This document shows positions 14,067-44,600 of a DNA stretch of 64,000 nucleotides, piece by piece (within the stretch, counting starts at the first letter, position 1; each line of letters opens with the position of its first letter). Below the pieces are notes generated by a model, which saw only the letters and a list, made by a program, of their open reading frames with translations, did not search any database and was not told where the DNA came from. The translations under genes were made by a program, and so were the position numbers. The DNA comes from Tubulanus polymorphus (lineage: Eukaryota > Nemertea > Palaeonemertea > Tubulaniformes > Tubulanidae), in contig NC_134028.1 in the NCBI RefSeq assembly GCF_964204645.1, positions 8,411,001-8,475,000 on the forward strand. Direction: 5' to 3'.

Positions 14067-16883
14067 TTAATTCGGATGAGCAATTTTGTTAAGTTCGGTT
14101 ATAAATTCTGTTGAATTCGGTGCGACCGTCGGATTAAGCCTAGCTACTGGTTTCCCGTTTGCATCGATAAGAAACTTCTCAAAATTCCACGTGATATCGG
14201 TCGTTTTGATTGGGTGCCAAAATAAGTCTCGAGGATCACCGATCACGTTTACTGGATTGGGACAAAGCTCCTGCAAATACAGAAATAAATATTTTTGAGA
14301 AATAGTATTTGTTTCTGAACAATATTTTGCAATTATTCAAAAAATGAAATTGTGATTATTCCAATTAAAAACGAGGATATTTCAGTCATTCGCTGCGGCG
14401 ACTACCAGCCAACAGATGCCTCCATATTCAGCCGTCCTGCCGAACTGCAAGCGAAAACAGGCGATCAAATCGGAAACAAGGAAACTGTATTTTGGGCCAG
14501 TCTTAAAATCTAGGTATTAAGTATTGGTCTTAAATCCACCTTGAATTTTAAGACTGGTCTTAAGTTGTTAGATTCTTCATAGAACTTAAGATGGTCTTAG
14601 ACTGTATGATCTTAAGACGAAGCCATGGCTATGGAGCTGGCCCTAGATTAGTTAAGTTACGGGCAAATAAATAGCTTTAAATTTAGTAATGAATTACATT
14701 ATTTGAATCACTGTATATCATCAACTATAAGTATTTGGGTATACTATTCTCCCATACCGGGTCTTTTGCTCAGTGCCGAAAAGCGTTAGCAAACCAAGCA
14801 CAGCGGGCTATGTTCTTTGTTTTAAAAAAGGTTAGCGAATATTCACTCGACGTTGATGTTAGTTTAAAGTTATATGATAGCATGGTATTACCAATTCTAT
14901 TATTTGGTTGTGAAATTTGGGGTTACGAAAATCTCCGAGTTCTTGAGTGCGTGCAGCTGAAATTTTTTAAATATTTACTCAAGTTAAAGAAATCTACTAA
15001 TAGCTCATTTGTCTATGGAGAACTGGGTCGTTTTCCTCTCGAAGTTTACGTACAGCTTAGAATTGTAAATTTTTGGGCAAAATTAATAACTGATGATAAA
15101 TTATCGTCAAAGGTTTACAGTTGTGTTTATAATAGCTATATTGATGGTCAAGCTAACTCTTGGATGGATTCTGTGAAGAACATTTTGCTCCGAAATGGGC
15201 TCGGATATATTTGGGAAAATCAAAATATTCCAAACGCGAATTACTTGAGTCTGATTCTTAAACAGAGATTGCAGGATCAGTTTATGCAAGTCTGGCATGC
15301 AAAACTTACTGATTCCACTATGGCTGTTACGTATTTAACAATCAAATGCCGTTTCGAAATGGAAAAGTATCTAACTGAATTAACCCCTAGGGACCGGTTA
15401 ACTTTATGTAGATTTAGATGCTCAGCTCACAGGCTACCGGTGGAAGTTGGGCGGTGGCGTGGAATTGCCCGTGCCAATAGGCTGTGCCAAAAGTGTGATT
15501 TAGTGGCGGTGGGGGATGAATATCACTTTTTACTCGTCTGCCCGTACTTCCAGGAATCCAGAGCTAGATATATCCCGGAGCGTTATTGGAGATTCCCCAA
15601 TAACGTAAAGTTGTATGATTTGTTTAACTTAAATTGCCAAACTCTTAAAAAATTGGCGTTGTATATACGCAAATGTTTAATACATTTCTAATGTTAAATG
15701 TTGCAATGTCTATTGTAAATTAATTTTGTGCTCTGTGCAATTGTATAATTGTGGAGTAAATAAACTTAAACTTAAAACTCATCATGTAACTAACCAACTT
15801 GCTCCAATCAATTTCAATTTTTCGAAAAGATTCTTCTAAGAACATGACATCTACAACGATTTTCGATTATTTGGTAATTCGTAATACACATCCCGGAATG
15901 AACTCACCTTCAGATATGTAAAAAGCGGCCGTTCGTTCGGCCCGTTGACTTCAACTTTGCCGGAAAAGTAAATATTGGCGTCTGGAGTAAAACCATGACC
16001 GGGTCGAACGTATTTGATACCGTTAACTAACTCGTATTCGTTAGCTGCCGGTTCCTGGTGTCCAAACTGGTCACACGGAACTCCCAAAACGTGTAGATTT
16101 TTGTATCTAGGCAGAAGTGCATTGAAATCCACGTAATTACCAACCGTCAAACCTGAAATGTTTAATGGAAAGGTCGCTTTTTACCACGAGAGAAGGCAAA
16201 AAAAACAATCTATCTATGATATATTTGTACCATATCCAGGTTGAACTTCGCGCAATACAAAGGTTAAATCAATTTCTCAACTCTTTTTTTAAGGTTTCCT
16301 TTTGTTTCGTAGGTTTCTGTTGGGTTCTCGACAATATGCGTTAAATCCCAAATTTACCTCCAAAGCCTAGAAGTTGCTTTAAAAGCTACAGAACGTCTCG
16401 GAATAGGGGCTGAAAATGTTGTATTTTAATGGTGTATTTTACCAGGGAAGTGTGATGAGATGGAATACGGACGCTATTGTACTGCTCTTGTTGAATGTGC
16501 GTTGTAATTGCCCTAATGCCGATAGCGGTTCGTTGGCGAGCACTTTGTTACGTAACGCCCTGATAAGCGATAACCAGCGAGATCGGGAAGCTCCGTCATA
16601 ATTCGGTTGTTTCCGCTCTGTTAAAAATGGCAACGGTGTTATTGTAATCAGGGAATCTCATCACACTTCCCTGATTTTACTTACCTCAAAAGGTCGCTAC
16701 GTTCGTAATTATAAGCGGCTTTCCTGCGAATTCTTTTAAAGAGAATTCCACTTCTGGATTTTCTAACGTCGGCATGGAATATTGATAGATGGTGTTGGGT
16801 GACGATTTACAGTAGGATACATCACCGTAAACCAGGCCTATCAGCAAAGATAGGACCACGGCTTGCCTAGAGACACCGGCCAT
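14067..16883 (-). CDS. Secreted selenocysteine glutathione peroxidase (GPx3-like), copy B
   Basis: Exons 16883-16685, 16152-15908 and 14270-14067 encode 215 residues. A signal peptide (MAGVSRQAVVLSLLIGLVYG) is followed by the GPx fold. Selenocysteine is residue 66 (NVATF-UGA-G at the exon 1 end), with Q95 in PCDQFGHQE and W176/N177 in TWNFEKF. The C-terminus is shorter than in A, C and D, ending AHPN. This is the most diverged copy and the most invaded by repeats: a 231-bp inverted-repeat element fills half of intron 1, and intron 2 carries a MITE (about 14490-14650) and a LINE fragment (about 14700-15776). The splice sites and frame are nevertheless intact, so it is probably functional. Confidence 0.92.
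14490..14650. mobile_element. MITE, family 'GGGGCCRGTTGCA' (copy in GPx B intron 2)
   Basis: Inverted termini: left 'tgggccagtcttaaaatc', right end reading in reverse 'agggccagctccatagccat'. The interior has repeated 'cttaagac' motifs. The right end matches the termini of the clearer copy at 63756-63893. Confidence 0.6.
14700..15776 (+). mobile_element. 5'-truncated LINE (ORF2 C-terminus) in GPx B intron 2
   Basis: An open frame up to 15691 begins within the reverse-transcriptase tail ('YKYLGILFS', 'SMVLPILLFGCEIWG') and ends with a zinc-knuckle region 'CQKCDLVAVGDEYHFLLVCP', the usual C-terminus of Jockey/I-like LINE ORF2. The 3' UTR ends in 'aataaacttaaacttaaa'. It lies opposite in strand to GPx B. 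The reading frame of about 320 codons is uninterrupted, so insertion is fairly recent; the endonuclease and catalytic YxDD region are missing. Confidence 0.85.
16443..16673. mobile_element. 231-bp inverted-repeat element, CAGGGAAGTG family, 7-bp TSD
   Basis: Termini CAGGGAAGTGTGATGAGAT and its exact inverse flank a 190-bp interior without coding capacity. The element is bounded by the direct repeat ATTTTAC (16436-16442 and 16674-16680). The right copy overlaps positions +5/+6 of the GPx B exon 1 splice donor. It shares its first ten bases with the much smaller palindromes at 17793 and 42633. Confidence 0.85.
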
Positions 16884-17439
16884 CGTGGCCTGCAGTTCGA
16901 CTCTGAAAGCTATAGGCTCTGCATGTCGTACTTAAACTCGAATCATGGACGTATAACCTAGTTTAGTCAAATCAGTTTCGAAATATATGATAACATATCA
17001 TTTACGTCTGAAAATGAAGTCATGTATGTTAACACTCGAAAAATGAACTGACACAATTTTTGTAATGAATTTTTTTTTAGTGAAAAGAATTGACACCAAA
17101 TGATTACACGGTTAAGGTGAATGTCAGCTTCAACTAATTAGGTCAGGGCCCCCTTACTTTACTGAAAGAGTTCTGTCTCACCTTTCTACTTTCACAAACA
17201 AAGATTACGTGCTGTTTCCCTTCTTCCGTCGGATAATTCAATCTTGTTTTATCCAAAACTGAGTCGTGTACTTTACCATATAGATTGTTAGTCACCCCTC
17301 AGTCAATTGCATGAAAACGGCCAAGTTTGTCCGCGTTTCTCCACGCAGGATAGATTGGTTTAAAAGAGCTTTTTTTAGAAATATCGAATTCAACATTTCT
17401 CTACAGGACAAGAGCTGATGAAATGATACATGCAGGATT

Positions 17440-17760
17440 TCATTTTGTCATCCAGTGTCACTGAGATGGCACACACACACGTGTAGTCTCTCAAAGCCCA
17501 TCGTTCCACAACCGAGAGCAGCCCCTTGATAAATACTTCTCCAAACAAAATTAGTTCCCCAACCCCCATTGTTCTACTGCTCCAATACAAACTATTTTCT
17601 TCGTCACACATCACCCAGTCATATGGGGTATTACTTCGCAATAAGCAAAATAAAAGGGCAAATGAATAGCAATTAAAAAGGTATAATCTGTGAAGTTTGA
17701 ATTCAGAAATTATATCTTGGCATGGAAATATGAATAGCATTTACTTTCCGTGAAACTGGG
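17440..17760. repeat. Duplicated upstream flank of the nucleoredoxin-like exon copy 2
   Basis: Aligns by eye with 5585-6280 (shared phrases 'cagtgtc.ctgagatggca', 'ttccccaac/ctcat', 'ggtgcggcaacga'). No gene is supported. Between 16900 and 17440 nothing was recognised. Confidence 0.6.
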
Positions 17761-17792
17761 TGCGGCAACGACGATTTATTTCTATGTCAAAC

Positions 17793-17827
17793 CAGGGAAG
17801 TGTTATTACACTCATTACACTTCCCTG
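17793..17827. mobile_element. 35-bp palindromic insert, CAGGGAAGTG family, 7-bp TSD GTCAAAC
   Basis: A near-perfect palindrome with arms CAGGGAAGTGTTAT... and its inverse, ending CACTTCCCTG, flanked on both sides by GTCAAAC (17786-17792, 17828-17834). The duplicated locus at 6298-6304 has one GTCAAAC and no insert. Confidence 0.88.
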
Positions 17828-17965
17828 GTCAAACAGACTAATAAGCTCTGGAGGGTCGTGCGTGGAGTTAACGTTGACGGATGCGTCGTGACTTCAATCA
17901 GATTACTCTGACACCTGCACGAGTCGCAGTTCATCGCATCATACACGGTCCTATACAACCACGAT

Positions 17966-18053
17966 ATGGAAAGTCTATTGGGCAAAGAAGTTATGGACAA
18001 AGCCGGTGAAAACGTACCCGTATCTTCGCTAAGCGGCAAAGGAAAATATATAG
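17966..18053 (+). pseudogene. Orphan duplicate of nucleoredoxin-like exon 1 (copy 2)
   Basis: 29 intact codons plus one base start with ATG 17966 (MESLLGKEVMDKAGENVPVS) and end in the same AG|GCAAGTG donor as the other two copies. Upstream 'attactctgacacctgcacg' and 'acacggtcctatacaacc' match copies 1 and 3. The next unit downstream is the 3' end of GPx C on the opposite strand, and no exon 2 follows. The interpretation is as for copy 1: a fragment carried with the GPx duplication, possibly still transcribed. Confidence 0.6.
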
Positions 18054-18545
18054 GCAAGTGAAAATAGTTTGTGTCGTATTTTGACTGGTACGTAAAGGGT
18101 GTCCTCTGTCTACACTGTCATCCCAAACTGTAAGGGTTCTGCTGTCAACATGGTGTACTTTAATCACCATACTGGTTGTTATCTATGTGGGGTGCTTGTC
18201 TCCTGTCAACCGTCCGGTGTGAGCAAAACTTTGGAATACGTAAACCAATCGAGGATCTATTTCTGTGGAAATTATTTTAGTTCCATTTGCTTTCAACTCG
18301 CGCATTGATACATTTCTTAATACCCCGATTCACTAAAATGTAACTATCCAGACGAGAAAATGACGCGAAAAATGATAATATGACTCGATTTCTCTGTTCA
18401 ATATCGGGACTATATTCGATTTTATAACATATACGTTTTATCGGTATAAAGATCGAAGAAAACAACGCCTTGTAAAAGCACACAGAAACACACGGCCGTT
18501 TGTGAAACGTAAATTCTGTGAATCAATGCACTAAAATTCACGAAA

Positions 18546-18611
18546 TTCTGTTCCATAATCAGAATAAAGTCTCGCTATGTTTTGACAATATTCGTCACAA
18601 ATAAACGTCCA
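18546..18611 (-). promoter_or_regulatory. SECIS element of GPx C
   Basis: The core runs from GTGA (18598-18595) to TGAT (18561-18558), with GAATA/TATTC, GTC/GAC and loop AAAACATAGCGA. Same 41-base spacing as in A, B and D. No AATAAA is visible at the place used by the other copies (there it reads AAATCGAG), so the 3' end of C may use another signal. Confidence 0.85.
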
Positions 18612-19428
18612 AAATGTTTCGTCGATATTTCATTATCGTTAGAATTCGTCGATCTTACATTGATCAAACGAAATGATTGTTTTAATTACACAACTCTTAC
18701 GAGAATCGTCGTATTCTTTACTGAAATAGCATATTTGAAGGATTAATCGAAAAGAGAACCAATCAAAGTGATTTTTATATATGGAATGAAATGTACCCCC
18801 CCCCCCAAAAAGAAAAAAATATGTTGAACTATCACTGCGCCTGGCCGTTTCAAGACATTGCAGACGATGTCGTTCAAATGAACCACAAAAGTAGATCGGT
18901 AACAGATGCCGAATTTCTATCGAATTTTTGGAGTAATCGGTCTGATTACTCCAAACCATATCAATTACGAGTACCTGATGCAACGGACATTTTCTTGCCA
19001 AAACAATTCAACCCGACAATAGCAATTAATTTCATATAACGAGAGAGGGCGTATAACATATTATGTAACATATGTCGAAACAATGGTGTCTGGTAAATTT
19101 AAAAAAGATGATTAAACTATGATTATTCATATCGTCATTACACGGGGTTCCCGCTATCCAAATGGCTTGCAGGATGACAACATTACATGCCTAGGACCTT
19201 TATTCTCGAGTTAAACAGTTATTCGGAGTTCTCCGTCCCTCCCAAGGCATCGACGGGGACAAGAAAAGAATGACACTTACCATTGTTTCTAAATCTAGCG
19301 AAAAAATGCGTCATGATAAACAGGTTTACGTCGGTAGAAAAATGGCATAATCCATTTTCTAATTTGTGAATTTCGAAATTTGCATATGCTAATTCTATGA
19401 GTTATTCGGGATCGAAACAAAAATACGT

Positions 19429-21072
19429 TTAGTTGTGTCTTTTTTTCGGATGAGAAATTTGGTTCAGTTCGGATATAAATTCTGTCGAATTCGGGGCGAC
19501 CATCGGATTCACCCTGATCAATGGTTTCCCATTTTTATCGATTAGAAACTTCTCGAAATTCCAAGTGATGTCGCTTGTCTTGATCGGCTGCCAAAACAAC
19601 TCTTTTGGGTTACCGATCAAATCTCTTGGGGCGGGACAAAGCTCCTGCAAATTCAGATATACATATTTTGTAAATGATTAGTAGCAGTTTTCAAAAACTC
19701 TTTTTCTTTTGAAGATCAAATCTTCGTATCCCCTGTAAATGAGAATATTCAAACAAGAAATTTGTCTCTGCAACAAATACCGGCGATCCGCCAAAAGGCG
19801 ACGTAAAGCATATTTCGGGTTCTATACTCGCATTCTAGGACTTACCTGCAGGAGTAACTATATTTCGTGCTTTAAACTGGAATTGACATATTGAATTAAT
19901 GCCAGTCAACATTATGAACTGCGTTAATAATGTTGACTGGCATTAATTGAATTGATAAGTACTATAACCATAATTCTTATTAAACCTTTTTCTATCGAAA
20001 AGATCCTCATAAAAACTGTCCGACGATTTTTGTTTCTCAAGATGAGTAGCTGGATAAGATCAACTCACCTTTAGATACGTATAAAGCGGCTGCTCGTTCG
20101 GTCCGTTGACGTCAACTTTACCGGAAAGGTGAAAATTTCTATCTAGTTTGAAATTATGACCGGGCCGAACGTATCTGAGACCGTTAAACAACTCGTAAGC
20201 ATTAATTGCCGGTTCCTGGTGTCCAAACTGATCACACGGAACTCCCAAAACGTGTACGTCGTCGTATTCAGGAAGAAGTGCATTTAAACCCTCGTAATGA
20301 CCAATAGTCAAACCTGAATTCATGAAAAATATTATATTTAATCATGATAGAAATCTGGAAATATCTTTTCTACCTACATGTCAATGTCTATATAGGATTT
20401 TGAGCTAAATGTTGTTTTAATAATCTTTTAAATATTATAGTTAATAACAGTATAGAAAGGGTTCAAGTTAAAAAGGCCTATGCGGAGCCGATTCCTCCAT
20501 CGCCACTTCATCTGGCTCCGGGCCCAATATCGAGTCGAATCTAACTAGACAAGGTTTCCTAGTAGATTTACCTCTGTCGCCTCATGCGTATTTCTACTTG
20601 CGATCGAATGCGTGAACTATTGATATAAACATCCTTTGAAGCGATAACAATATAAACAGAATTTTTCTAGTGAGTAAAACATTGGACTCTATCAGTTATG
20701 GATATTTGGTTCCCTGAATTCTCTATACCTAGGATTTTAGGGTTTTAGGGATAACTGAAGGAATCCCAAGTATACATTCCGTCATTGAGATATCGCATTA
20801 CGAAGGGTCTCCTAGATAAAGCTATGTATTAAGCTACTCTGTGTTTGGAATGGGTTTGACAGTGTATCTTACTTACCTCAAAAGGTCGCTACGTTCGAAA
20901 TTATCAGTGGTTTTCCTTCGAATACGCTTAAAGAGAAGTTTTCTTTTGGATTTTCTAAATTCGGCAGTGAATACTGGTAAATATTATCGGGTGAATAACT
21001 GCAATAGGACACATCACCGTAGACCAGCCCTATCAGCATGGATAGGATCATGGCCTCCCTTGAAACACCCAT
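19429..21072 (-). CDS. Secreted selenocysteine glutathione peroxidase (GPx3-like), copy C
   Basis: Exons 21072-20877, 20313-20069 and 19644-19429 encode 218 residues. Signal peptide [20 protein letters not shown]; selenocysteine 65 (UGA then G|GTAAG donor); Q94 in [10 protein letters not shown]175-N176 in ITWNFEKF. Exon 3 is almost the same as that of copy D ([18 protein letters not shown]), whereas exon 1 and intron 1 resemble copy A more (shared intron phrase 'cattacgaagggtctcctag'). That mosaic pattern suggests gene conversion among the copies. Intron 2 carries a 49-bp palindromic insert absent from copy A. Start chosen as in copy A. Confidence 0.93.
19898..19946. mobile_element. 49-bp palindromic insert, AATGCCAGTCAAC family, 7-bp TSD TTGAATT
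   Basis: Arms AATGCCAGTCAACATTAT and ATAATGTTGACTGGCATT are complementary around a 12-base loop. Direct repeat TTGAATT lies at 19891-19897 and 19947-19953. The equivalent place in GPx A intron 2 reads 'aaattgaattagtatta' with a single copy and no insert. Confidence 0.75.
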
Positions 21073-21199
21073 CACGACTAACTGAGCTTGCTCGTCCGAA
21101 TGACGCTCTGCTGTTGACTTCTTCAATACGGTCACTGAAAAATAAAAATGAAGAGCCAGATGTTTGCGGCGGGGCGATTAATCTACGTTAACAGCTACC

Positions 21200-22040
21200 A
21201 CTAGCTGAAAATACACCTCGTTAAATTTTTTATATTATACTGGAAATTAGTATGTAATTAATTTATAATTAGTACGTATATTGTGAATGTCAATTACTTC
21301 TGTTAATTTACATTGCGTATGTTAGAACTATCGTGTGGCCGTCATGACGAGGCAAAACTCAGCAATGAGTCGCGATTAGCTCAAAAAGTTAAGATATCGA
21401 AAACGTTGAAATTCATAGTTTAAATCCGAATTCATTTTCGTTTTTTTCACGAAATCTCAAGGAATGGCCCGAAATACAACATATCACAGTTTATATGGCA
21501 GAAATGACGATGTGCGATGACTAGTCGACAGAATGATATAACCATTATCCCCGTATCCAACATAACCACCATCTTCCATCATCATCTTCCCCAGCATCAC
21601 TATCACCACAATCATCTTCTCCAGCATCACCTTTTTCAGCATCACTATCACCTTCACAGCATCCCCATCACCTTCTTCAGTGCCACTATCACCTTCTCCA
21701 ACATCTCCTCCATTTTCATGATACATGTATAGCAAAATATCACCGTGTTTTCGTTTTCTTTTTCCGCGACATTTTGGACCAAAGATGCGTAGGAAAAACA
21801 AAACATAAACATATTCCATTGATCATATATAAGACATACCCCGAATAACCACACCAGAATTCATTATCTAACTGCATCAAATTTAAATCGATTAGACATA
21901 CATCCATTTCGTACCAAATTTCAAATCAAATTATTCAATATAAACACATTTTTTGGTTAATACGCTAAACTATTACCGTTCAGATAATGATTTGAAATAT
22001 GTGTAAACGTACATTCAGTCTATATAGATTTTAACAGCAC
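21200..22040. other. Spacer between GPx C and the GPCR, with a CAC/ATC-rich minisatellite
   Basis: 21555-21720 is an imperfect repeat of 'catcaccttcttcagca'-like units. The remainder is AT-rich with nothing recognised. The region must contain both the GPx C promoter (leftward) and the GPCR promoter (rightward). Confidence 0.6.
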
Positions 22041-22043
22041 ATC

Positions 22044-24715: not shown

Positions 24716-24818
24716 AGAATATGTCAAGGAAATATGAAAAGCATTACTGCGAGATTGTAAGGAGCTTGAATGTACTGAATTCCAGACAAGAAAATAACGC
24801 AACAATTAATTGTATGAC

Positions 24819-25611: not shown

Positions 25612-25652
25612 CATGGACGTATAAACTAGATAATCTAGTTTATACTTCCATG
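25612..25652. mobile_element. 41-bp palindromic insert, CATGGACGTATAAACTAG family, 7-bp TSD ATGACAC
   Basis: Arms CATGGACGTATAAACTAG and CTAGTTTATACTTCCATG (one mismatch) are separated by a few bases. ATGACAC lies directly on each side (25605-25611, 25653-25659). It lies in the 3' UTR of GPx D; the matching 3' UTRs of GPx A and C lack it. Confidence 0.85.
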
Positions 25653-28689: not shown

Positions 28690-28790
28690 GTGTGGCAGGT
28701 TTGGTTCCGTGGCCGAGTCTAGCCATGGAGTCTAAAACGAGTCCATGGTCTAACGATGCCGTTAGGTTTCAACTCATTTTAACTTGTAAT
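28690..28790 (+). mobile_element. tRNA-derived SINE copy 1, interrupted by a palindromic insert
   Basis: 'ggcaggtttggttccgtggc' starts a tRNA-like head with an A box (TGGCCGAGTCTAG). The B-box region 'ttaggtttcaactc' is degenerate. A 24-bp palindrome sits between the two boxes. Other copies are at 33775, 48110 (minus) and 48360. Confidence 0.55.
28724..28747. mobile_element. 24-bp palindromic insert, CATGGAGTC family, inside a SINE
   Basis: CATGGAGTC - TAAAAC - GAGTCCATG, flanked by GTCTAGC (28717-28723) and GTCTAAC (28748-28754), a 7-bp direct repeat with one mismatch. Uninterrupted SINE copies read straight through this point ('gagtgtagcgatgcc'). Confidence 0.75.
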
Positions 28791-29489: not shown

Positions 29490-32400
29490 ATGGAGAGTTT
29501 ATTAGGCAAACAAGTCGTGGCCAAAGCCGGTGAAAAGGTACCCGTATCTACACTGATCGGCAAAGGAAAATATGTAGGCAAGTGAAAATATTTTTTGTCG
29601 TATTTTGACCATTTGTACAATTTTTCTTTCAAGAGAAACCGAATTTGATACGTAGGTTGTTATACATCGGATCATATAAATCAGTTGTTTTACTGATATA
29701 CCAGCGCGCTGATACATGCATAATTGAATATTATCAGATAAATGAATGAATCAACGAGAATTAGAAATGTGAATATGCGATTAGTGAATACTGTAGGCGT
29801 TCAGGGTAGTTCACCGTCACCTATGTATACCGACCGGTATACGAATGATGAAAATAATGCATTTATGCATTATTTATGCATTATTTTGACCATTCTAGAT
29901 TAAAACGATTTACTTCGGCTAGTTCCTATCAAAACAAAAATAGAGCGAAATGCCATAATAGTACCATATGCCCGATAGTTTGAAGGTTTCATATATTGAT
30001 TGACCGTTATCGAGAAAAAAAGGACAAAATGCTGAAGTTCAGAATATTATCTATTTGATAATTTGAAGGTTTCAAATATATTGATATATGTAGTTATGGG
30101 TTTTGCACAGCTGTATTCAGTTGTGTTTGTTATGTATTTGCTTATCTCTTGTACCGATCCGGAAATATTTCTGTGAATATGTATGATTCTATAGCCATTA
30201 ATCTCAGCAACAGCTGGGCGATTCCAGTAGCCGTCTGTATTTTGCTAAATCGTCAATTTGAAATGTATGAGATTAACTCTCCCCGCGCAACAGGTTTAAC
30301 GCTACGTGTACATACCAAAATATCTCGTCTCTTCGGAAATGCCGTTGGGAATTTGTTTTTAAATATTTTTGCGACCTGCGTTCTGATTCTTATAGCAATC
30401 ACGAAGAATGACGAATGGAGATCTTATGAATTTGTATATTTGAAATTTTGATATATGTATACATTTTTTTCAAATATTTTCGTGCTTAAAAAACGTAACA
30501 TATTTGTTTTCAAGAGGATCTATTTCCGTTGTTTGCATTTGTTTAATTACTTATTCAGACTTTACCTTTCGACCTTTCTAGTTAAGTAGTAGGTCTACCA
30601 TAGCGAAAAACGTGGTGGAATATCAACATTTTTGATTCCAAAAATTAAGTACATTTTAATCAAGACCAGCCAACGCTTCAGTCTTCAGTTATTTCAGTTT
30701 GATTTCAGTTCGGTTTTTCGAGATTTTCTTCTTGCCAGGGGAAGATCTAGGCCGGGGTCTAGAAGAAAAAGAAAGGGATTTTTCAGACAAAGCAGCCATC
30801 TCATTTGCTACTACTTTTGTGGTAGATACTTTTTAAGAAATGTATCTGAAAATATATGCAAGTTACGAAAGGATGAGCATCAAATTAGCAAGTTTTAACG
30901 ATCTTTGAATTGACGAAAAGGGCAACTTCAATGGGAAGGCACTGGTCCCGACGCCCAGACCACCCCCTAAATCCGCCCCTGCACAGCGAACTCCTTTTAA
31001 CTATCTCAGACCCCTCAATCAAATATTATGAAAATTATGATTTTTTTTCTAATTGTATCATGTTATTGAAACGGACGTGTCTCTTGTTTATTGAAGGTTT
31101 ATATTTTTCGGCTCACTGGTGTCCTCCGTGTCGGATGTTCACGCCCAAACTAATCGCCTGGTACAAGTCGATGAAAAAGAAGAACGTCGATATAGAAATC
31201 GTGTTCGTCAGCTCTGATCGGGATGAAGAATCGTGGCGGGAATATTATGAAGAAATGCCGTGGTTGTCGTTGCCTTTTGAACTCAGAGATCTAAAGGTTA
31301 TACTTTGTGATTGATTGATTTTATTATGTGTATACATATGTAGGCTTTATTTCAGTTTCCTATTTCACATAACTTAGGTCTGCGCATTGCGACGCAAGGC
31401 CGACAACCAGTTTAACACTATCTACATAGGTACGGTTTTACTGTCAGTAAAACTCAATTTTTTTAAAATGAAATCCCCCCCAACACACACACTATCTATT
31501 GCGTGAGGAGGTTTCAATAAAGAGTTCAGACCATTAGTCCAAAACCTTCAATATCATACAGTAAAAACAAGAAATTCAAACGTTTAGTTCAAATATAAGG
31601 GCGTAAATTCAGGGGAAATCCTGCTTATGGCTCTTAAGCCAGCATCAAGCCACGCATCGAAGTGGTTTTCGCCCCACATACCCAACCTAATTTTTTGGAA
31701 TAATCAAACCTTTAGAAAGGATCCCCCACCGTGTTTGGTACCCTTACTCCACCGTGTTTGGTACCCTTACTCAAAGCAAAAAAGTCCAGAGAATCCCTTA
31801 TTTTATCATCAATCTGTCTCTCAGGACCAACGGATTTCATTCATATAACCGAAATTCGTAACCTTTATCCCATTTGCAGAATTATTGCAACATTTTCTGG
31901 GGGACCTCTTCTTCGCTCTAGGTACTTTTTTTGAATTTTTGGGTCCGGCCCTACGCATCTTCAAGCTACTAACCTAATTGTGGACTGATGCCATAAGATT
32001 TGACGCTTATGATATTCATTGTGTTTATCAATATGTCGCCTAGCAACTTGCACCCAAACAGTGTGAGGGTGTTAAATTGTTAATTGGTAATGCGTACGGA
32101 AAAGTGTGACAAAAGAATGATTATCACTGACTCCAGTGCGACAGCAGTCGCGGCCACGCACTTAATATCAGTAGAAATATAGCCATGTTGTCACTTTCGT
32201 TTTAGCATTCGTTCGGCTTGTAAAAATGAATTCGTATTCTTTCCTAAAACTGGTTAAAATGCACCTTGACAGTTTGAATGGCGCGCAGTGCATTACGAAG
32301 CCAGTGTAAAACTGCAATGGAGTTGTCTCTAGTGACGTAGCTACAACCATGGACGTATAAACTAGATTATAGTTTATACGTCCATGCTACAACTTAATAA

Positions 32401-33774: not shown

Positions 33775-33860
33775 TCTACTGATGCAGGGGTTCGTGCCGT
33801 GGCTGAGTGTAGCGATGCCATCAGGTTCGAGTCCCTGCAGAGGGAGGATGTGTGATGAAC
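33775..33860 (+). mobile_element. tRNA-derived SINE copy 2
   Basis: 'gcaggggttcgtgccgtggc' is followed by the A box TGGCTGAGTGTAG, a good B box GGTTCGAGTCC and a closing 'cctgcagagggaggatg'. The GCAGGG/CCTGC ends can pair like an acceptor stem, but the body is too degenerate to be a working tRNA gene. Confidence 0.65.
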
Positions 33861-34689: not shown

Positions 34690-37600
34690 TTATCTGCAAC
34701 CGCACGTATCCACAACCATTTCCTCGTGGTGCCTCATAACGATTTCATCGAATTCGAAATACAGCAAACTCAAAGGCGATAGTTTAGTCGGCACGCAACA
34801 CGGGGCTAGGACAGATTTGTCTTTGTGTTGCATGAGACTTTGCATAACGGCGTGATTCGTGGGATCGTAGTCCTGCGTGACCGGAGACGGGCAACCACCG
34901 GCGCACAATTGAGCGTTGAAATCTTTCGGATATATGATCCACTTGCTCCAGCCTACGTCGTCGAAACTAATCTGGAAATCGTATTTGGCGCAAGGTTTGC
35001 CTTTCTTCTTGGCGCGCTTCCATTTCGATTTGTTTCTATTGCGATTTTTGTTCCGTTTTTCCGAAGTGCGGCGAACACGTTTCGCCACGTGGACGTTCGC
35101 TAATGCTTTATTCAGATGTTGCTTCAGAAAGTCTTTCTCTTCCGATAACAGTAACAGAATAGCCTCCTGGGTGCGAACGTACCGAGTAAACCTTTGTTTC
35201 ATTCTATTCTCGTGTATTCTCGTTGAACGGCGCGAATTCAGCGATAATTCCAAAAGGTCGTCACCGCCTTTGATAAATCTACGCATTTTTTCGAGGACAG
35301 TCGTAATGCTTAAAACGCGAAAACCGCCGATTTCATCGCGGTGGGTTCCGATCGTGAATTTTCGTCGTTTTCCGTATTTTCCATGCGACCTCAGCCTGGC
35401 GATGATTCTGTAATGCGTCACCCGGTGGCGCTCGTGTCGGTGAGCCTTGACCCGCAGCTCGGCCAATTGGATGCGTTCTTTTTTGTCGATTCCTGACACG
35501 TCAAACATTAAATTGATTTCGCCTCTGTTTCTCAAACGACCGGCATCAACTAAATTAAAAATAAGGGACGTTTAAGACAACAACAAAAGATAATTTTCCA
35601 TCGTATCATGAGATTTTTAAATTCTTAGAAAATATTTGAATATCTTAATTTTTAAGTCATCAAATTTCCATTTATTTCCTCTGCTTGGTTTCTATTTCCT
35701 AATTTGTTTTCCTATATTTTGTGTCAGAAGTCATCAGAATATAGTAGTTAGTTTTCAAGAATATTTCTAACAATCTCAGCTTTGTTCAGCATTGATATTA
35801 TTTCGAGCAATGCAATAAATCTTATATCTGAGACAATAACTATACGTATAATATACTAAACGGCAGAATGCGCGGCGTTCCTTTCTTGGTAAAGTCTTCC
35901 GATTGCCACGGATTAAGTGGGCTTAGTTAGGGTAAATTTGTCGTTCTACCAGTACTAATGCGCATTAGAAAACGCGTTCGAATAAAACATTCTTCATAAT
36001 CAGATGGATTTTATGCGGACAATCTTATTCAAACGAACTTTCGCAAATAATCGGTGGTTAATTTACTGCTTTTCGTGATGTTAATGTTGTCTTGATGCCA
36101 AAATGTCAAAACGCGGTCGTTTCTTTAATACAATCAATTACGTCGCTACTTCACATTATGTTGTAGTAAATTGCTTGCATATTACAGAAGAATGCTTGGT
36201 ATTTAACAATCTGAAAAACCTGCTGTGTTCGTAATTAGAAAGCAGGCACTGGCAATCAAGGATGAATGATAAAACAATGCAAATCGTGCGGACAAACAAT
36301 TCGAATTTGACTATCAATCCTAAGATAATTGATGTTCAGGACCCCTGGGTTTCGAACCCAAAATTCTAGATTATTTTGCACGAGGTGTGACTTCACAGGC
36401 TGTAATTAAACCACCACTTCACCATATAGCTAATTTGCGTATCGAAATATGACATCTAAATGATGACGAAGATGGTTTTAAGAATGGATCTTTTCAACTA
36501 ACCTGACAAATCATGACGGATTGTTTTACCTATGTATTTGGCTAGATCGATGAAGGAAATCATAAAATTTGATTGATTCTAGTCGAGAACTATTGTACTA
36601 CAACGCGGAAACTCCATTACCAATCGTGGATTTATGTAAGGATTCAAGTTTTAATTCCCCAAGAATCAGCTGTCCAAATTGTCACCTAGGATCGAGAATT
36701 AATCCCGCGTAAAAAGACCAAAGGAACGGTGCATGCATCAACAGATTAACTATATGTAACTATTAACATATTTTTACAAGGAACTAGGAAAGGCGGCGAA
36801 ACATTATTCCAATGATTTCACAAATCTTGATTATGGTTAAGAACAATCAGGACGATATTTTCACCCCCACCGTGGGAACTTTGACACTTTTCATTAATTT
36901 TCTATACAGAAGTGTGACCGTGGTCATCAATTAACCGGGCGATCAATCAAGAAACATACTAATTAAGGATGCCATTATATTGATACTTGCGCGCTTGAAG
37001 TGCGTGCGCCTTGCCGTGCCGGGCCTTAAAAACGCGTCAATTCATATGTCAGACCTTATTAATTATGAGATTGATCAAATGTTTGATTTGTAAGTGAAAA
37101 TTGATGTAATCTACGAGCTTCTTATTCTTATGTGACACACCGCTAATTAATGCTCCTAAATTATGAAAGTGAACACATTCTAAATACGCAAGAGGAACCA
37201 ATTTCTATCAACATTAGATTATTGAATATTGCATCTATTCCATACTTTATTTCACTTTTCCGTAAATCATGATTTATTATTCGAGCGTTATTATTCTCAG
37301 AATCGTCCTCAATAGATGAAAATCCATGAAAAAGTCGAGGAAATATTTTCGAACTTTATTTGTTCGTTATACTTGTGGGATTCTCTTTTTACATTATCGT
37401 CACATCACGGATATAGGATCCTATTAATGGTGATTTCTACGATAAATTTTTTCATTGATGCAATGAGAAGAAAAATGCTACATGTATCTAAACCATTTTG
37501 AAGTTAAATTCTAAAATAGCATTTGTAATTTCAAACACTACGAAAGACGTGCCATCGTGTAAAAGACTTAATACATAGATATGAAAGATTCACTGACTTA

Positions 37601-38507
37601 ATCAATCTTAATATAATTTCGGTTGATTTAAGAATCCATTAATAATTCAGGAACAATCTGGTATTCCGTTCTCCTGGGACAGGTTAACGCGAGAAAATCC
37701 GTCCTCAAATATACCCATTACTACACCTAATATATCAATCAACGCCAATTAAGATCGTCTAAATTCCGTCAAAATAGTCTAATAGATATGTCCCTTGGGT
37801 TTTCATTGCTCTTATGAAAAACATAGCAACAGAACATTTCCATATTCACGATTGATGATAACAGGTGTGATAGAAGATTTTGAAAATATGTTGGTTTATA
37901 CCAAGAAAGGAATAGCCGATGTTTTCAATATGTTCTTTGTAGTAGATTTGCTGCTTTAGGACATGAAAACTTGCAATAGTTAGTTTAAGGATACGATTAC
38001 AGATCGAAATATGGAACATTCTTTTTTTTATGGGAACTTTTAAGATCCATTGACAGAATTATTACATGGGACTCTATGTTAACTTTTTAATACTTTAAAC
38101 ATTTGCAAAATATTTCATTCATTCACACGTTTTAATTCATCGACTTATCAAATTATGGGGACGTTACCTTTAGCAGAAATAGTTCTTATTGTGTCCGGTT
38201 TCATCGCAGCCATTTTATCCGCCATTTTGTTGTGACCGGTGGCTTCGAATAAATTCTGGCCTTGATTCGTAACTTTCTCGTAAAGTTCCATCATGAACTT
38301 GGCGCTGATTCTCTGTGCGTCTCCGATCGGCAGTCCAGATTTCAAGATGTGATCTTTCACGATTTTGTCGATTTGTGAGCGGGTTATGTTGGTGCGACTT
38401 CTGACGGCATATCTCGAATTGCTACCGGCGACGAAAATATCGATAAATGCCGCGGAGAATAAGATACAAATTGTCATGAAAACACGCGAAACTTCGGCAG
38501 ACGACAT
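34690..38507 (-). CDS. nodal: Nodal-like TGF-beta superfamily ligand precursor
   Basis: Exons 38507-38168 and 35549-34690 join in phase 1 (AAA G|TT) to encode 399 residues, a secreted growth-factor precursor. Residues 1-27 are a signal peptide (VFMTICILFSAAFIDIFVAG). The prodomain contains FMMELYEKV, typical of the family. A furin site RVRR (about 271-274) releases a mature domain of about 125 residues with all seven family cysteines, including the CC pair used for dimerisation and the terminal CGCR. Blocks WIIYPKDFNAQLCAGGCPSP, DPTNHAVMQSLM, PTKLSPLSLLY and RHHEEMVVDTCGCR read most like Nodal, rather than BMP or activin. Nodal sets left-right asymmetry in spiralians. The single 2.6-kb intron shows no recognised enhancer. 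Confidence 0.88.
35550..38167. other. Intron of the Nodal-like gene
   Basis: AT-rich, with donor AAAG|GTAACG and acceptor TTTAG. No repeat family, ORF or FoxH1-type motif was recognised by eye. Confidence 0.6.
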
Positions 38508-38519
38508 CGTAAAATATAT

Positions 38520-39510
38520 AGTTCGAATTAATTCATACTAAAACCACGTATCAAATGAACACTTCCTTAGTTAAAGAATTCGACTCGCGTTTAAAAGAAG
38601 AAACGTTTTGGAAAAAATATCCACCACCGAACACGAGTTATGTTTATCTCAGTTAAGAGCGAATTTCCGTTAAAAGGTCACAAAACAAAAGACGAAAGTC
38701 GCAGCCTATCTCGTATATCAATCTGAATATGTAACTGCGCTGGTTTTTAAAAACGACGTAATATCCTGAAGCGAATAACTCTCCGGAGACCGATCGTTCC
38801 CGAGCCTGCCAGGTCAATGAGAGCGCGATGACCCGAACTAAATTCGGAGCTGCTCTCTGAATGGCCCGTCATTTCCAATACCCGACATCTTAATTGCACC
38901 AATTTAAAACCCCCCAAGCCCGGGTATGCTGCCACCAAACTTTGTTTTATTGAATTGAGCGGCTACAAATCATCTATGAATGAGCCTATTAGATAACACA
39001 ATTGGGGGCACAAAAGAGCCGCATAATTCTTCACTAATATCATCACACAGAAATACACTGCCTTTTCAGACCATATTAGCGAGAGGAGTGAAGACAACGT
39101 CGACATTTTAAGAAACCAGAGCAACGGACTAGAAAATCCGCGGTATTGTATTTCTCAATGAGAGAGGATCATTTTCAACCAATAAACTTAATCTGACCAG
39201 CAGACAACCGAAGTGCCCCACTTGATTAATTACACCCGAGGTCTTCACGTGTAGAGATTAAATCTGAAGTATAGACAAATTCAGATGTTTAAATAAATCT
39301 GATATGCTTCTCGCCTATGATGATTGTAAAGATTCGAATGATAGATATAACTGTGTATCGTGTATTGTGGCACGTGGTCATGAACTGCCCTCTTCTGGGT
39401 TTCTGGTATTGTACAAAGTAGTAAAAAACAACGACGAACGATTTTCATTTTCGAGGAAGGCTCAGTTATGTACACGGTATTTGAAGAAGTCCCACGTGAT
39501 AGAATTTATC
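38520..39510. other. Upstream region of the Nodal-like gene
   Basis: Presumed promoter side. No convincing TATA box or Smad/Fox cluster was found by eye. The ORF at 38747-38938 (minus) shows no family similarity. Confidence 0.4.
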
Positions 39511-39870
39511 ATTATGAAACTACAACGTTTCGGCTGCTAACAGCCGTCATCAGGTCGAATGTCCAGAAACACAAGTTGTGTTGAAACCATTGGTGAACCA
39601 CTATCCCACGTATAACGATGTGTAGATAAAACGATATATAGATCGAAAAGTCGATTCAATATAGCTTGAAGGAGATTTTTCGGGCTTCATCTTTCTCGCT
39701 TTATTAGTGTGATTCTCTATATATTGTGTTGAAACACTTTTGTTTCAGCACCAGAAACCGCGGTATAAAGTTTGGTATGTTTGAGGCCAGAAACAATTGT
39801 ATTTTTGGCTATTACCACCCGATGATGGCTGTTAGTCAACAGCCGAAACGTTGTGGTTTCATTTCAATAC
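39511..39870. mobile_element. Penelope-like or retrozyme-like repeat with two hammerhead-type motifs
   Basis: An inverted pair of about 45-base modules bounds the unit. On the minus strand (39553-39524) it reads CTGATGA, stem-loop GGCTG-TTAG-CAGCC, then GAAAC with palindromic AACGTT. On the plus strand (39814-39857) stem I ACCAC/GTGGT encloses CCGATGA, stem-loop GGCTGTT-AGTC-AACAGCC and GAAACGTT. This is the order of a type I hammerhead ribozyme with a minimal palindromic stem III. A related piece without the motif is at 47745-47905 ('cttcatcttt.tcg', 'gactctatatatt'). Confidence 0.6.
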
Positions 39871-40039
39871 ATTCTATCGTATAATATTCCCAATTGTGGA
39901 ACTTCTTCAATTATCTACACTGTAGACGGATTACCCCGGTATAGTATAATTTCTTCGACTACTATCGTAGACGGTGTCACAATACTCGGTGACGTCAAGA
40001 TTTACAAACACTATCTTTCAATAGTCAAAGAAGAAAATT

Positions 40040-40460
40040 TTCAGTAAAAGTATCCGGCCCTTTACTTTGGAATAACATCAGTGAAAATCTAAAAAACATA
40101 GAAAATTCTAAACTGATCCTAAGAAATTATAGAAAGCAACTTTGTGCTTGATTTTATCATACAGTTATTCGAACTGAGTTATTGTTTTTGAAATATTACA
40201 GAAAACAACTGGCTTATTAAATGATTATATCTTAATCAAGCTGTTATCATAGTTTACTTTGATTGCATTTTTGTGTGTTAAGGGTTGACTGTGAGCATAT
40301 TATTTTCTTTATTGCATTTTGATGGACCTGCACAAACTATTCCTTAGTTTCTACAGGCCCCTCCAGGTCTAATTTACTGTATTTTGTATTATGCTTTGCA
40401 CACTATGCTGTAAATTATATTTGAAAAATAAAATGTTCAAATCAAATAAAATCAAACGGT
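40040..40460 (+). mobile_element. LINE 3' end (CR1-like tail)
   Basis: 40045-40150 encodes the usual ORF2 ending 'KVSGPLLWNNISENLKN' ... 'LRNYRKQLCA' and a stop. A 3' UTR with 'tttctacaggcccctcc' follows and ends in AATAAAATG / AAATCAAATAAAATC repeats. The 5' limit is unknown. From 40460 to 41638 no gene is recognised; a short frame at 40502-40792 has no family similarity. Confidence 0.6.
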
Positions 40461-41261
40461 GTCGGTGACCAACACTTTCAGCTGTTTTAGTTGATCTACG
40501 TATGCCCATGTATTTTATGGTTGGATGTCCCTCCGGTGGAGATACCATAAACGCATTCAAAACAGCTGAGATTGATTTTTTTATTTCTAGAGCTCAATTG
40601 ATTCACGAGCTTTTATCAAATGCCGAGGGCAAACACAACAACAAAAAAGTCGCCTATTTTGAAAAACCGGTTACTCATCTACCCTACGACTCGTCTGACA
40701 GTTGTTTTTTCTCTCGTTACTCTGGCGGTTATGACATGTACTACAGAGAAGCCGTCTGCCCTGACATTCATGGAGGAGAAAATTATCGATAGAATCCGGA
40801 GCTAATACCGGGATTAATAGCATTCCAATCGGATGCTGCCAAAATGGAATGTCAGGTAAACTAACCGTTATTTGTACAATAGGTAAATTTACGTCGAAAT
40901 AATTGGCTCTGATCCGTAGAAATAGATAGGAAATCTCTTGTTGTTTTGACCTTGAGTTTCCAGTCAATGGATTAGAAAAAATGTACAATGTACAAGAATT
41001 CATGTTTCTGCGCTGATCAAAATAAATTGACTGATTTATACACTCACAACAGAGAAACCACCCGGAAGAAATAAATGGGCATATTTCGATCCATGTTTAT
41101 GTAGAGAATCAACCTTTTTGCAGAATGATATGTACCGGTATGTGAGGAATGCCTAATGACCTAGGGTTCAAAGTTTCATTTGATATATCGATAATATCAG
41201 GACATGCAAAAAAACTGAATTTCACATATAATATATATTGTCACTGCAATATACACCTAAG

Positions 41262-41288
41262 CGTGGACTCTAAAACGACGAGTCCATG
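41262..41288. mobile_element. 27-bp palindromic insert, CRTGGACTC family, 7-bp TSD
   Basis: CGTGGACTC - TAAAACGAC - GAGTCCATG, flanked by ACCTAAG (41255-41261) and ACCTGAG (41289-41295). Same arms and loop style as the 24-bp insert in the SINE at 28724. Confidence 0.7.
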
Positions 41289-41638
41289 ACCTGAGCAAGT
41301 CATTTGGCGAATCAATAACCCGGGTATGGATAGCAGTACCTCCCGTTGATCCATTGCTTATGAAAAAAATCTTATAAACATCGATTGATTAAATAATTGA
41401 TGGATAGAATTTGCATACTGTATTGCCAAACATAACCAAGACTTGTGAAGTGACTAGAGAGCAACACCTGTCTAGGATAGCCATGCCTCTTTCATGAACT
41501 TGACGTCTTAGAGGTTTGTTCTCGCACTCAGATAGTTCTCGTTTCTTTCATATCTCTCTCATTCCATGTAAACGTACTAGAACGCGCTGTTATCTTACAG
41601 GGTAATTTTTAGTTGCGCGTAGCCACATTCCCAAGACC

Positions 41639-44600
41639 ATGACGAGTGATGCCATTGCAGCTGGAAACCAGTCAAATATCGGGATCGGAATTCATCTCCT
41701 AGGACTGGTTATCGCTCTGATATTTGCGTTTGTTTTGTCCAAACTATTGAGACGTCAATCAAAATTCAGACAACCACCTGGACCGCCTACATGGCCCATT
41801 ATTGGTAATCTGTGGGGTATGTTTTTGGTATTTCCAATATATTATGATTTTGAAAAAAGTTTCTAGTGAAAATAGCAATCCAGTATGCATTTATATTCTT
41901 TTTCAGAGATTGAAAAAGAAGACAAGGTATACCTACTGTTAACGAAGTGGGCCAAACAGTACGGTGACGTATACCAAATCAAAACTGGTAATTTCACACC
42001 ATCGGACACTAGATAAATTAACCGAAAATAAAATAGAATCTTTACTATGAAATATTATTATTCACTACTTTGGTCGTACATAATTGTTTTACTATGGCCA
42101 TTATCAACAACGACCGAAAATGAAATAGCATCTTAAAACTGAAATGTTATTATTCACTACTTTGGTCGTACATAATTGTTTTGCTAATGGTCATTTTCAA
42201 CAACGTTTAGTGGAAGTGTGTCCAAGAGAAATCAACATGATATCTTTTACATTGAGTAACGCTTGGCACATGGCTTTTAAAAGATAATTTCGGATTTTTT
42301 ATGCTGCCAGAACCTTTTTGTCATTGTTAGAATCATGGAAGTATAAACTATCAATCTCCAGTGTATACGTCCATCATAGAACCTAAACCTCTTTGATTGT
42401 AGGCTACAGTTCAATGGATAGTTATCATCAGAATATCTTTTCAGGACCAAAAACAGTAGTGATACTGAGCAGTATTGCGGCAGTAAGAGATGCATTTGTG
42501 AAGAAACAGATCGATTTTTCTAATCGATCAAGAAACGTATCCAGTGAGTTACAATGAATCACGCAGACCCTTAACTCCCATGACATTAGCAAATTGCATG
42601 CGTAGTGATTTGATCTGAAGAGTTCATTTATCCAGGGAAGTGTTCCCTGAAGTGTTCCCTGATTTATCAAAACGTGATGACGTAAAATGGGAGATGGCCA
42701 TATTTTGTAAAATGGAAGGGAAGGCGTAATGTGAACGATCAGAACTACGGACAATGCTTAATGAGTGCCAGAAATGCGAATTTTAAGTACCTAAAAAAAT
42801 AAATATTTTATGCTATGTTTATAAATAAATGGTGATGATATCTTTTATAATTTTCTATGGTTTGTTTGTGATCAATATTCACTATGCTATTTATATGAAT
42901 TCAGACGAACTTCAGTCGGATGGCTACAATGATGTTCTATTTGCACCGTATTCTGAAACCTGGAAAATACACAGAAAACTACTGAACCAAGCTCTCAGGT
43001 AAACTATAATCTCGCATTTTCCGTCAGAGCTTTAAAATATATTGCACGCACCCTGCAGTATGAATCAGCAGACGATGATCTATTTCGAAAAGTTATGGTT
43101 GTTTCATAAGTGCTAAAGAAATTACAGTAAAAACATTTTGTTTGCACTGACTTGGTGTAAATCTTCTATGTGATTTCTTGTGTAATCGTATACAAAATTC
43201 TCCTAAATGGTGCCTTCAAGAAATGGAGTATTTTTCTATTCATAGAAATTTTGCGACCGAAGAACACATGATGCACCACCTGCAGAACAGCATGAACATA
43301 GCCAATGCATTCTTAGCTCCCGATCTCGGAAAATCTTACGATCCGTTTAATTTCGTAACTCTGATAGTTTATAATTTCATCTGCAGTATGATCGTTGGGA
43401 AAGTGTAAGTATTTTGATAGGTTTGTAGTAAAGAAGGAACATGTGATGTTGTAGACCAACACTATAAAGGCTTTCAGCAAACCTCACCTTACTCGGACTT
43501 GACCAACTCGGACAAAAATGAAATCATTTTGTGACTTGCCAACGCATTTTCCTATCCTTAACTCGGACTTCACTTTCTTCGGACCAATTTTGCTGGTCTC
43601 GGTTTGCCCGAGTTGAGTGAGGCTTACTAGTTTACTACACTTTTAGAACTTGGGGTTCTTGGGGCGGTTCTTGATAGAACCTTGGGATCTTGGTGGAAAC
43701 TTAGGGCTCTCTTCATCCATGCTTCTAACTGTCTGGGATTCAAAAGACATTACGGGTGGTTCTTCAAAGAACCGTCAACGTCCTCATTGAAAAATTGAAA
43801 ATGATTCATTAAGAAATCATAAATCAAAAATATATTACCACGAATTTCTGAATAACTGGTCGATTCTAATATGTAATCATTTCATTGTTTGGATAGCTAC
43901 ATACCTTATATTGGTTGGCCTATCAATAAATGATGCTATTTTTGTATGAACTGAAGTTGAACAGGTTCTTTATGCTCCCTTAGTTTTCATTATATGTATT
44001 TAGTTCTTTAATCTAAGAAATACACTTATTTTAGCGAAGATTTCGAATTCATAAGCAGACATCAATGTTAGTCTGTATAAATATAACATATACAACTTTA
44101 CAACTTTACAAAGTGACGGGTGCCGATATAGAAACGGCGTTAGGACATATTATATTTTATATTTTCCGAAATGTAATGTATAGTTCTGTAAGTACTGTAT
44201 TAGAAACTTATTGTATGAAATTAAGGACCATGATGGTCTATTTCAATAAACTTAAACTTATACTTATACTTATATTTCTTGCTTGTTCTAGATTTGACCC
44301 GGACGATCGCGAATTCAACGCTTTGAGAATCCGCCGCAGAGAAATCACGGACACGATCGGAAACGGTTTTTTGGCGGATTTTTTCCCGATGTTGAAGTAT
44401 TTCAGGATTCCTCGACTGCGCAAAGCCCAGGCACTGGTCGACGACATGTTGAAATATTCGCAATCGATTCTAGAAAGTCATAAACACGCGTTCTCAAAAG
44501 GTGAGTTTGAAAACATTATGAGTTTTACAGTTAATGCTAATGAAAATTGTCGGTCAAACTCTGAGATGGAGTCTAAAATTGAGAGAAGTGTTTTCATTTA

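What the first reader, a model, noticed from the sequence alone, without database searches (positions are those of the whole stretch)
16436..42668. Several unrelated families of 24-49 bp palindromic inserts share a 7-bp duplication rule
At least seven sites show it: 16443 (231 bp, ATTTTAC), 17793 (GTCAAAC), 19898 (TTGAATT), 25612 (ATGACAC), 28724 (GTCTAGC/GTCTAAC), 32348 (CTACAAC) and 42633 (ATTTATC), plus two diverged ones at 41262 and 42334. The arms fall into distinct families (CAGGGAAGTG, CATGGACGTATAAACTAG, CATGGAGTC, AATGCCAGTCAAC). Most begin CA and end TG and insert after a heptamer ending in C. Common TIR superfamilies make 2, 3, 4, 5, 8 or 9-10 bp duplications; 7 bp is unusual. One transposase may mobilise minimal back-to-back termini, giving a 'nano-MITE' class.
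Basis: partly seen in the sequence, partly recalled or inferred. Interest (0 to 1): 0.9.

Follow-up and report, generated by a model that had tools for sequence, protein, structure and literature searches.

The report
Scars left by departed P-type transposons
The short palindromes are most likely not tiny mobile elements but scars left where P-type jumping genes cut themselves out of an animal genome and the broken ends were rejoined, so they form a natural archive of DNA break repair.

Summary
Short palindromes with CA...TG ends and 7-bp direct flanks occur throughout the host genome (268 Mb, an animal). Of 61 independent palindromes whose flanks I read, 47 have exact 7-bp flanks; none has a maximal repeat of 4, 5, 6 or 8 bp, one has 9. 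Their arms are the outer 10-20 nt of the 31-37-nt terminal inverted repeats (TIRs) of P-superfamily transposons in the same genome: a 5,890-bp element encoding P transposase and three 5.5-5.9-kb elements with P transposase matches. Drosophila P transposase cuts 17 nt inside the TIR, and laboratory end-joining products have the same anatomy: duplication, up to 17 nt, microhomology or filler, the inverted end, duplication (PMC2895639). I therefore read them as excision footprints. Galileo, also P superfamily, makes 7-bp duplications at GTANTAC; here the target is TNN-GTYWRAC-NNA. Strict patterns count 66, 149 and 167 such palindromes genome-wide. Site 16443 is a deleted P element rather than a minimal footprint. 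Site 19898 is a single-copy orphan and stays unexplained. Excision was not watched, and no second genome was compared.

The parts
17793..17827 (.). Excision footprint, CAGGGAAGTG family; flanks GTCAAAC exact
25612..25652 (.). Excision footprint, CATGGACGTATAAACTAG family (one arm with a substitution); flanks ATGACAC exact
28724..28747 (.). Excision footprint, CATGGACTCTAAAACGA family (same TIR as the 5,890-bp P element in L030; one substitution); flanks GTCTAGC / GTCTAAC
32348..32386 (.). Excision footprint, CATGGACGTATAAACTAG family; flanks CTACAAC exact
41262..41288 (.). Older footprint, CATGGACTCTAAAACGA family; left arm 17 nt with one change; flanks ACCTAAG / ACCTGAG
42334..42375 (.). Older footprint, CATGGACGTATAAACTAG family; flanks TTAGAAT / ATAGAAC (2 mismatches)
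42633..42661 (.). Likely footprint: left end CAGGGAAGTG, right end matches the family for CAGGGAA only, with a 12-bp unit repeated inside (GAAGTGTTCCCT) as in templated filler; flanks ATTTATC exact
16443..16673 (+). 231-bp P-element derivative: full 31-nt TIR plus subterminal sequence on the left, only 19 nt of TIR on the right; flanks ATTTTAC exact
16944..16961 (+). Lone CATGGACGTATAACCTAG end, possible one-sided footprint
19897..19945 (.). Orphan 49-bp palindrome, 7- or 8-bp flanks, single copy genome-wide; not assigned to the P families

Best explanation
The palindromes are excision footprints of P-superfamily cut-and-paste transposons. Insertion duplicated 7 bp at palindromic TNN-GTYWRAC-NNA sites (shown). 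On excision the transposase made a long stagger, cutting one strand at the element end and the other about 17-20 nt inside the TIR (inferred from the Drosophila enzyme and from the lengths retained). The two donor ends, each with a 3' tail of the same TIR sequence, were rejoined by end joining with 1-2-nt microhomology, blunt joins, or filler copied from the arms (junction anatomy shown; polymerase-theta-type repair inferred). The result is duplication, outer TIR, junction, outer TIR inverted, duplication. The scars are inert; at least one was later copied as a passenger of another repeat.
For: Parents exist with the same ends. L030 (C3) holds a 5,890-bp element with perfect 31-bp TIRs CATGGACTCTAAAACGAAGGGACGTGAAACG, duplication GGTAAAC, and a 773-aa ORF with PF21787, PF21788 (GTP-binding insertion) and a weak PF21789; P transposase 6p5a at E 5.7e-13. 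The TIR CAGGGAAGTGTGATGAGATGGAATACGGACG bounds three 5.5-5.9-kb elements, each with transposase matches, and 33 pairs 2.1-2.2 kb apart; 9 of 10 pairs examined have exact 7-bp duplications. Of 100 arms in 50 listed CAGG palindromes (of 149), one matches the TIR for 20 nt and none for more. Among 100 listed full TIR ends the closest facing pairs are 181 bp apart, so no two full TIRs stand back to back. Flanks: 47 of 61 exact 7 bp, 6 more with one mismatch; swapped-flank control 6 of 3,660. Junctions: of the 50 CAGG palindromes 21 overlap by 1-2 nt, 11 are blunt, 18 have inserts; 19 of 19 distinct CATG inserts of 5 nt or more share a 4-mer with the arms, mean 11.6 after shuffling, 0 of 2,000 shuffles reaching 19. 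Laboratory P excision products have this anatomy; 39 of 66 isolates keep 7 nt or more of both ends by my count, bases in the microhomology not counted. Galileo makes 7-bp duplications at GTAGTAC or GTATTAC.
Against: No excision was watched and no second genome compared. 14 of 61 flanks are not exact 7 bp (6 one mismatch, 1 nine bp, 7 worse). The patterns cap the length at 50 bp, so palindromes with two long arms would have been missed there. For the CATGGACGTATAAACTAG family the only parent end read (L077) differs from the footprints at position 20, and its partner end is not among the listed exact matches, so the retained length (19 or 20 nt) is uncertain. The filler excess is not significant for the CAGG family (6 of 6 against 4.0) or the L030 family (6 of 11 against 5.0). 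Short forms recur at independent sites, e.g. the 38-bp CATG form at 6, as a mobile family would, though one laboratory product also recurred 14 times. Some longer inserts recur at loci whose flanks I could not read: a 14-nt insert at two C1 places and the 8-nt CATG insert at three C7 places. 19898 is not explained.
Confidence: 0.93

Rival explanations
1. Nano-MITEs: the palindromes are minimal back-to-back termini mobilised in trans by a P-type transposase.
For: Exact 7-bp duplications, conserved ends, autonomous relatives in the genome; short forms without inserts recur at several sites; some longer inserts recur at loci with unread flanks.
Against: Only the outer 20 nt or less of the TIR is kept; centres differ between copies; the one insert of 2 nt or more seen at several loci with known flanks shares its flanks. 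Anopheles P-MITEs are said to carry somewhat under 100 bp of P sequence at each end, and D. melanogaster elements to need 138 and 216 bp (PMC1562414, passage).
Confidence: 0.05
2. Another superfamily (hAT, Dada or other) made the 7-bp flanks and left these footprints.
For: CAGGG termini recall hAT ends, and Dada is said to make 6-7-bp duplications (both recalled, no call). 19898 has a possible 8-bp repeat.
Against: The parents carrying two of the three main TIRs encode P-type transposase, an end of the third lies 1.3 kb from one, and the target motif is Galileo-like.
Confidence: 0.02
3. For 16443 only: a small true MITE with about four copies rather than a one-off aborted gap-repair product.
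For: 169 bp of its body match C5:11659977 at 99% and two C3 places at 93% over the full length; exact duplication.
Against: Its right end has only 19 nt of TIR, as a footprint end does; the first 142 bp match the ends of many full elements at 91-92%. The flanks and right ends of the other copies were not read.
Confidence: 0.4

Closest known systems
Drosophila P-element end-joining excision products (PMC2895639, Table 1 in section 7)
   Same: Duplication, up to 17 nt of TIR, microhomology or templated filler, TIR inverted, duplication; 33 of the 39 isolates that keep both ends are 30-44 bp long
   Different: 8-bp duplication there, 7 bp here; there one laboratory locus in Rad51-deficient flies, here hundreds of natural sites; ends of up to 17 nt there, up to 18-20 nt here
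Galileo (P superfamily; PMC2775673, PMC4168063, passages)
   Same: 7-bp duplications at GTANTAC within a longer palindromic target motif
   Different: Galileo has long, variable TIRs; here TIRs are 31-37 bp and the target is TNN-GTYWRAC-NNA; the passages read mention no palindromic scars
P-MITEs of Anopheles gambiae (PMC1562414, passages)
   Same: Non-autonomous derivatives of P elements flanked by duplications
   Different: They keep longer P ends plus a central region and have 8-bp duplications; the palindromes here have no body

Membership tests
P-superfamily excision footprint | Both copies of the duplication present, same length as in the intact element | tested here: met
   47 of 61 exact 7 bp; intact pairs 9 of 10 exact 7 bp
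P-superfamily excision footprint | Retained ends no longer than the transposase stagger, inside a longer TIR | tested here: met
   CAGG arms: 1 of 100 matches 20 nt, none more, TIR 31 nt; one of the two reference TIRs used was a supposed variant. L030 family: at most 19 of 31 nt in 36 arms
P-superfamily excision footprint | Junction with microhomology or templated filler | tested here: met
   Overlaps of 1-2 nt common; fillers above shuffles in the CATG family, not significant in the other two
P-superfamily excision footprint | Produced by transposase cutting about 17 nt inside the TIR | not testable with these tools
   17 is known for Drosophila P (PMC7776569, passage); inferred here
P superfamily (parent elements) | RNase H-type core with P-type GTP-binding insertion | tested here: met
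   PF21787 and PF21788 in P0001; 6p5a E 5.7e-13. In the CAGG family PF21787 at 2.5e-26 but PF21788 only 0.03; 6p5a E 1.9e-7
P superfamily (parent elements) | 7- or 8-bp duplication at a palindromic target motif | tested here: met
Canonical THAP-bearing P element | N-terminal THAP domain | tested here: not met
   No THAP match in the ORFs scanned; CAGG-family proteins begin with a C-x2-C...C-x2-C module instead. L030's N-terminal exon was not resolved. Filed by the catalytic core only, not as canonical P elements
MITE | Copies share internal sequence and move as units | tested here: not met
   At loci with known flanks only forms with at most a 1-nt insert recur at independent sites; the longer shared insert travels with its flanks. 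Some recurring inserts lie at loci with unread flanks

The most novel reading that the evidence does not exclude
The genome holds a large archive (382 strict cases, by the window's ratio probably over a thousand) of germline excision scars from several P-type families whose cuts lie at family-specific depths of 18-20 nt, just before a conserved GG in the TIR. The transposases of two of these families carry, in place of THAP, a zinc module resembling the N-terminal region of RAG1, which would make P-type elements a candidate source of that part of the V(D)J recombinase.
Probability: 0.3. Interest if true: 0.75.

Novelty: new member of a known kind. Interest (0 to 1): 0.5.

Why it matters
Each scar records one excision and one repair event in a natural germline, so hundreds of them let the cut position of uncharacterised P-type transposases and the habits of end joining be read from sequence alone. 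Repeat annotators could mistake them for a new MITE class. In the L030 family scars (167 by a strict pattern) far outnumber surviving full ends (7 with up to two mismatches), so footprints can reveal past transposon activity after the transposons are nearly gone.

Tried and rejected
Chance: rejected by shuffles, reversed-pattern controls and swapped flanks. Mobile nano-MITEs: disfavoured by retained length and centres. A single transposase for all: several related P-type TIR families were found. AATGCCAGTCAAC family: one palindrome genome-wide, and 78 loose 17-mer hits against 48 in the reversed control, so no family shown. Searches for earlier reports of natural genome-wide P-type footprints showed none in the parts of the listings I saw (e.g. 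20 of 4,179, 15 of 62, 10 of 21); the library is partial. Structure prediction of the N-terminal zinc module did not complete.

Full report
WHAT WAS CHECKED. The window is G000:C4:8411001-8475000 of an unnamed 267.8-Mb genome in 77 contigs. ORFs with 7tm, TGF-beta and bZIP domains in the window point to an animal. The nine sites were read directly. Four have exact 7-bp flanks around P-family palindromes (17793, 25612, 32348, 42633, the last with only 7 family bases at its right end); three are older copies with 1-2 flank mismatches (28724, 41262, 42334); 16443 is longer; 19898 is different. An unguided scan of the window and the loci then held (201,465 bases; many loci were fetched because they hold a palindrome) found 17 structures with maximal 7-bp flanks, 10 with any other length from 4 to 14, and one 7-bp case in five shuffled sets.

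GENOME-WIDE. Strict patterns gave 66 CATGGACGTATAAACT pairs, 149 CAGGGAAGTG pairs and 167 CATGGACTCT pairs, each with 0 in the reversed control. I read flanks of 66 palindromes: 36 of the CATG and 30 of the CAGG family, the window's two included; none of the 167. Grouping those with like flanks leaves 61. Of these 47 have an exact 7-bp duplication, 6 more one mismatch, one 9 bp, 7 worse; none has a maximal 4, 5, 6 or 8. Pairing left flanks with other sites' right flanks gave 6 matches in 3,660. The 47 target sites give a palindromic motif TNN-GTYWRAC-NNA: T three bases before the duplication in 39, A three bases after it in 38.

PARENTS. A search with the P-element GTP-binding insertion domain found six matches. 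Around one (L030, C3) lies a 5,890-bp element with perfect 31-bp TIRs starting CATGGACTCTAAAACGA, the arm of the 28724 and 41262 palindromes, and a 7-bp duplication. Its 773-aa ORF has PF21787, PF21788 and a weak PF21789, and matches Drosophila P transposase 6p5a at E 5.7e-13. Around another (L033, C7) lies a 5,311-bp element with 37-bp TIRs starting CAGGGAGGTG and duplication ATATGAC. A search with the L030 protein gave 59 matching stretches. Some of these lie inside 5,511-, 5,910- and 5,910-bp elements bounded by the full TIR CAGGGAAGTGTGATGAGATGGAATACGGACG (C4:10190125, C6:18193703, C8:4047801). That TIR has 114 places with up to two mismatches; of the 100 listed, 6 bound these three, 66 form 33 pairs 2.1-2.2 kb apart, 4 form two pairs 181 bp apart, and 24 are unpaired, 16443 among them. 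Nine of ten pairs examined have exact 7-bp duplications; the C6 copy does not. The CATGGACGTATAAACTAG end at C2:10098912 lies 1.3 kb before a P transposase match; its sequence continues AAGGAAGGCGCACC, and no partner is among the listed exact matches. Ends continuing AWGG number 16.

WHY FOOTPRINTS. Drosophila P transposase cuts the second strand 17 bp inside its 31-bp TIR (PMC7776569, passage). Rejoined donor ends recovered in flies are in Table 1 of PMC2895639 (section 7 read): duplication, up to CATGATGAAATAACATA, a microhomology or filler, the inverted end, duplication. By my count 39 of 66 isolates keep at least 7 nt of both ends, bases in the microhomology not counted. The palindromes here have the same structure. 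In the CAGG family, in the 50 palindromes listed (of 149), arms match the TIR for 10 to 19 nt, and one of 100 arms for 20. In the L030 family, arms of 18 palindromes (of 167; those whose letters were shown) match for 10 to 19 of 31 nt. In the CATG family (50 listed of 66) 51 of 100 arms end at 20 nt and 2 at 21, but position 20 was inferred from the footprints themselves. The patterns for the first two families cap the length at 50 bp, so they could not have shown two long arms; but among the 100 listed full CAGG TIR ends no facing pair is closer than 181 bp. Junctions are 1-2-nt overlaps, blunt joins or inserts. In the CATG family 24 of 24 listed inserts of 5 nt or more share a 4-mer with the arms against 14.3 after shuffling, but several are copies of one; counted once each, 19 of 19 do against 11.6, and 0 of 2,000 shuffles reach 19. 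In the other two families the excess is not significant (6 of 6 against 4.0; 6 of 11 against 5.0). Among loci with known flanks, forms recurring at different flanks carry at most a 1-nt insert; the one longer insert found more than once (three loci) shares its flanks, so it was copied inside another repeat. Two further recurrences are untested because flanks were not read: a 14-nt insert at two C1 places and the same 8-nt insert at three C7 places. That the patterns demanded exact arms makes the arms look more uniform than they are; it does not affect the flank test.

THE ODD SITES. 16443 carries a full TIR and a body that matches the ends of many P elements at 91-92% over 142 bp, one C5 copy at 99% and two C3 copies at 93% over 169 bp, but only 19 nt of TIR on the right. 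It is a deletion derivative, either from gap repair broken off and closed by end joining or a small MITE; I cannot tell. 42633 has an inner 12-bp repeat, as templated filler would. 19898 has one palindrome genome-wide, ends that are not CA/TG, and flanks readable as 7 or 8 bp; it stays unassigned.

KNOWN OR NEW. 7-bp duplications at GTAGTAC, GTATTAC or GTANTAC are known for Galileo of the P superfamily (PMC2775673 and PMC4168063, passages). Footprints of this anatomy are known from laboratory P excision. I saw no report of a natural genome-wide archive of them in the searches named under Tried and rejected, in a partial library and cut listings. The kind is known; these families and their abundance are new members. 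The lengths retained suggest cuts at 17-20 nt, just before a GG that begins the inner half of the TIR; this is inference.

SIDE LEAD. Transposases of the CAGG families begin with a four-cysteine module, not THAP. Evidence for a tie to the RAG1 N-terminus is weak: a three-sequence profile finds RAG1 chain 21wb at E 0.0017, Pfam RAG1_imp_bd scores 0.004, below its cut-off, in one protein, a single sequence gives 21wb only E 0.22, and zf-AD scores better in Pfam though also below cut-off.

LIMITS. Polymerase theta is inferred from junction style only.

Noticed in passing
L061:853-2733 (+), L059, L066, L033:6444-6875 (-), L060, L062, L064, L065: The P-type transposases of the CAGG families (and L065) begin with a C-x2-C...C-x2-C module instead of THAP. 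It scores below cut-off for zf-AD (5.8e-6 and 1e-5) and RAG1_imp_bd (0.004, L033 only); a three-sequence profile finds RAG1 chain 21wb at E 0.0017, a single sequence only at 0.22. The RAG1 N-terminus has been linked to a transposon, N-RAG-TP of Aplysia (PMC8355894, one passage).
   Followed up: partly
L014:1945-1965, L060:1457-1477: A 21-bp CAGG-type palindrome with flanks AGTCTAT / GGTCTAT lies inside P elements themselves, apparently an old nested footprint carried along; similar sequence shows in L062 and L034.
   Followed up: partly
window 61073-61439: A 367-bp element with 12-bp inverted ends starting CAGGGATGAAAA and 6-bp flanks TCATTG; a different family or an eroded duplication.
   Followed up: no
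L038, L051, L053: A 41-bp CATG footprint with an 8-nt insert shares its flanks at three loci: a scar copied inside another repeat.
   Followed up: yes
G000:C5:14489728-14489908 and C5:14525260-14525440: Two 181-bp stretches bounded by two full 31-nt CAGG TIRs, 36 kb apart: the shortest elements with complete ends in the list.
   Followed up: no
window 1807-5016 (+): 1,069-aa ORF with endonuclease and reverse transcriptase domains: a non-LTR retrotransposon.
   Followed up: no
   Followed up: no
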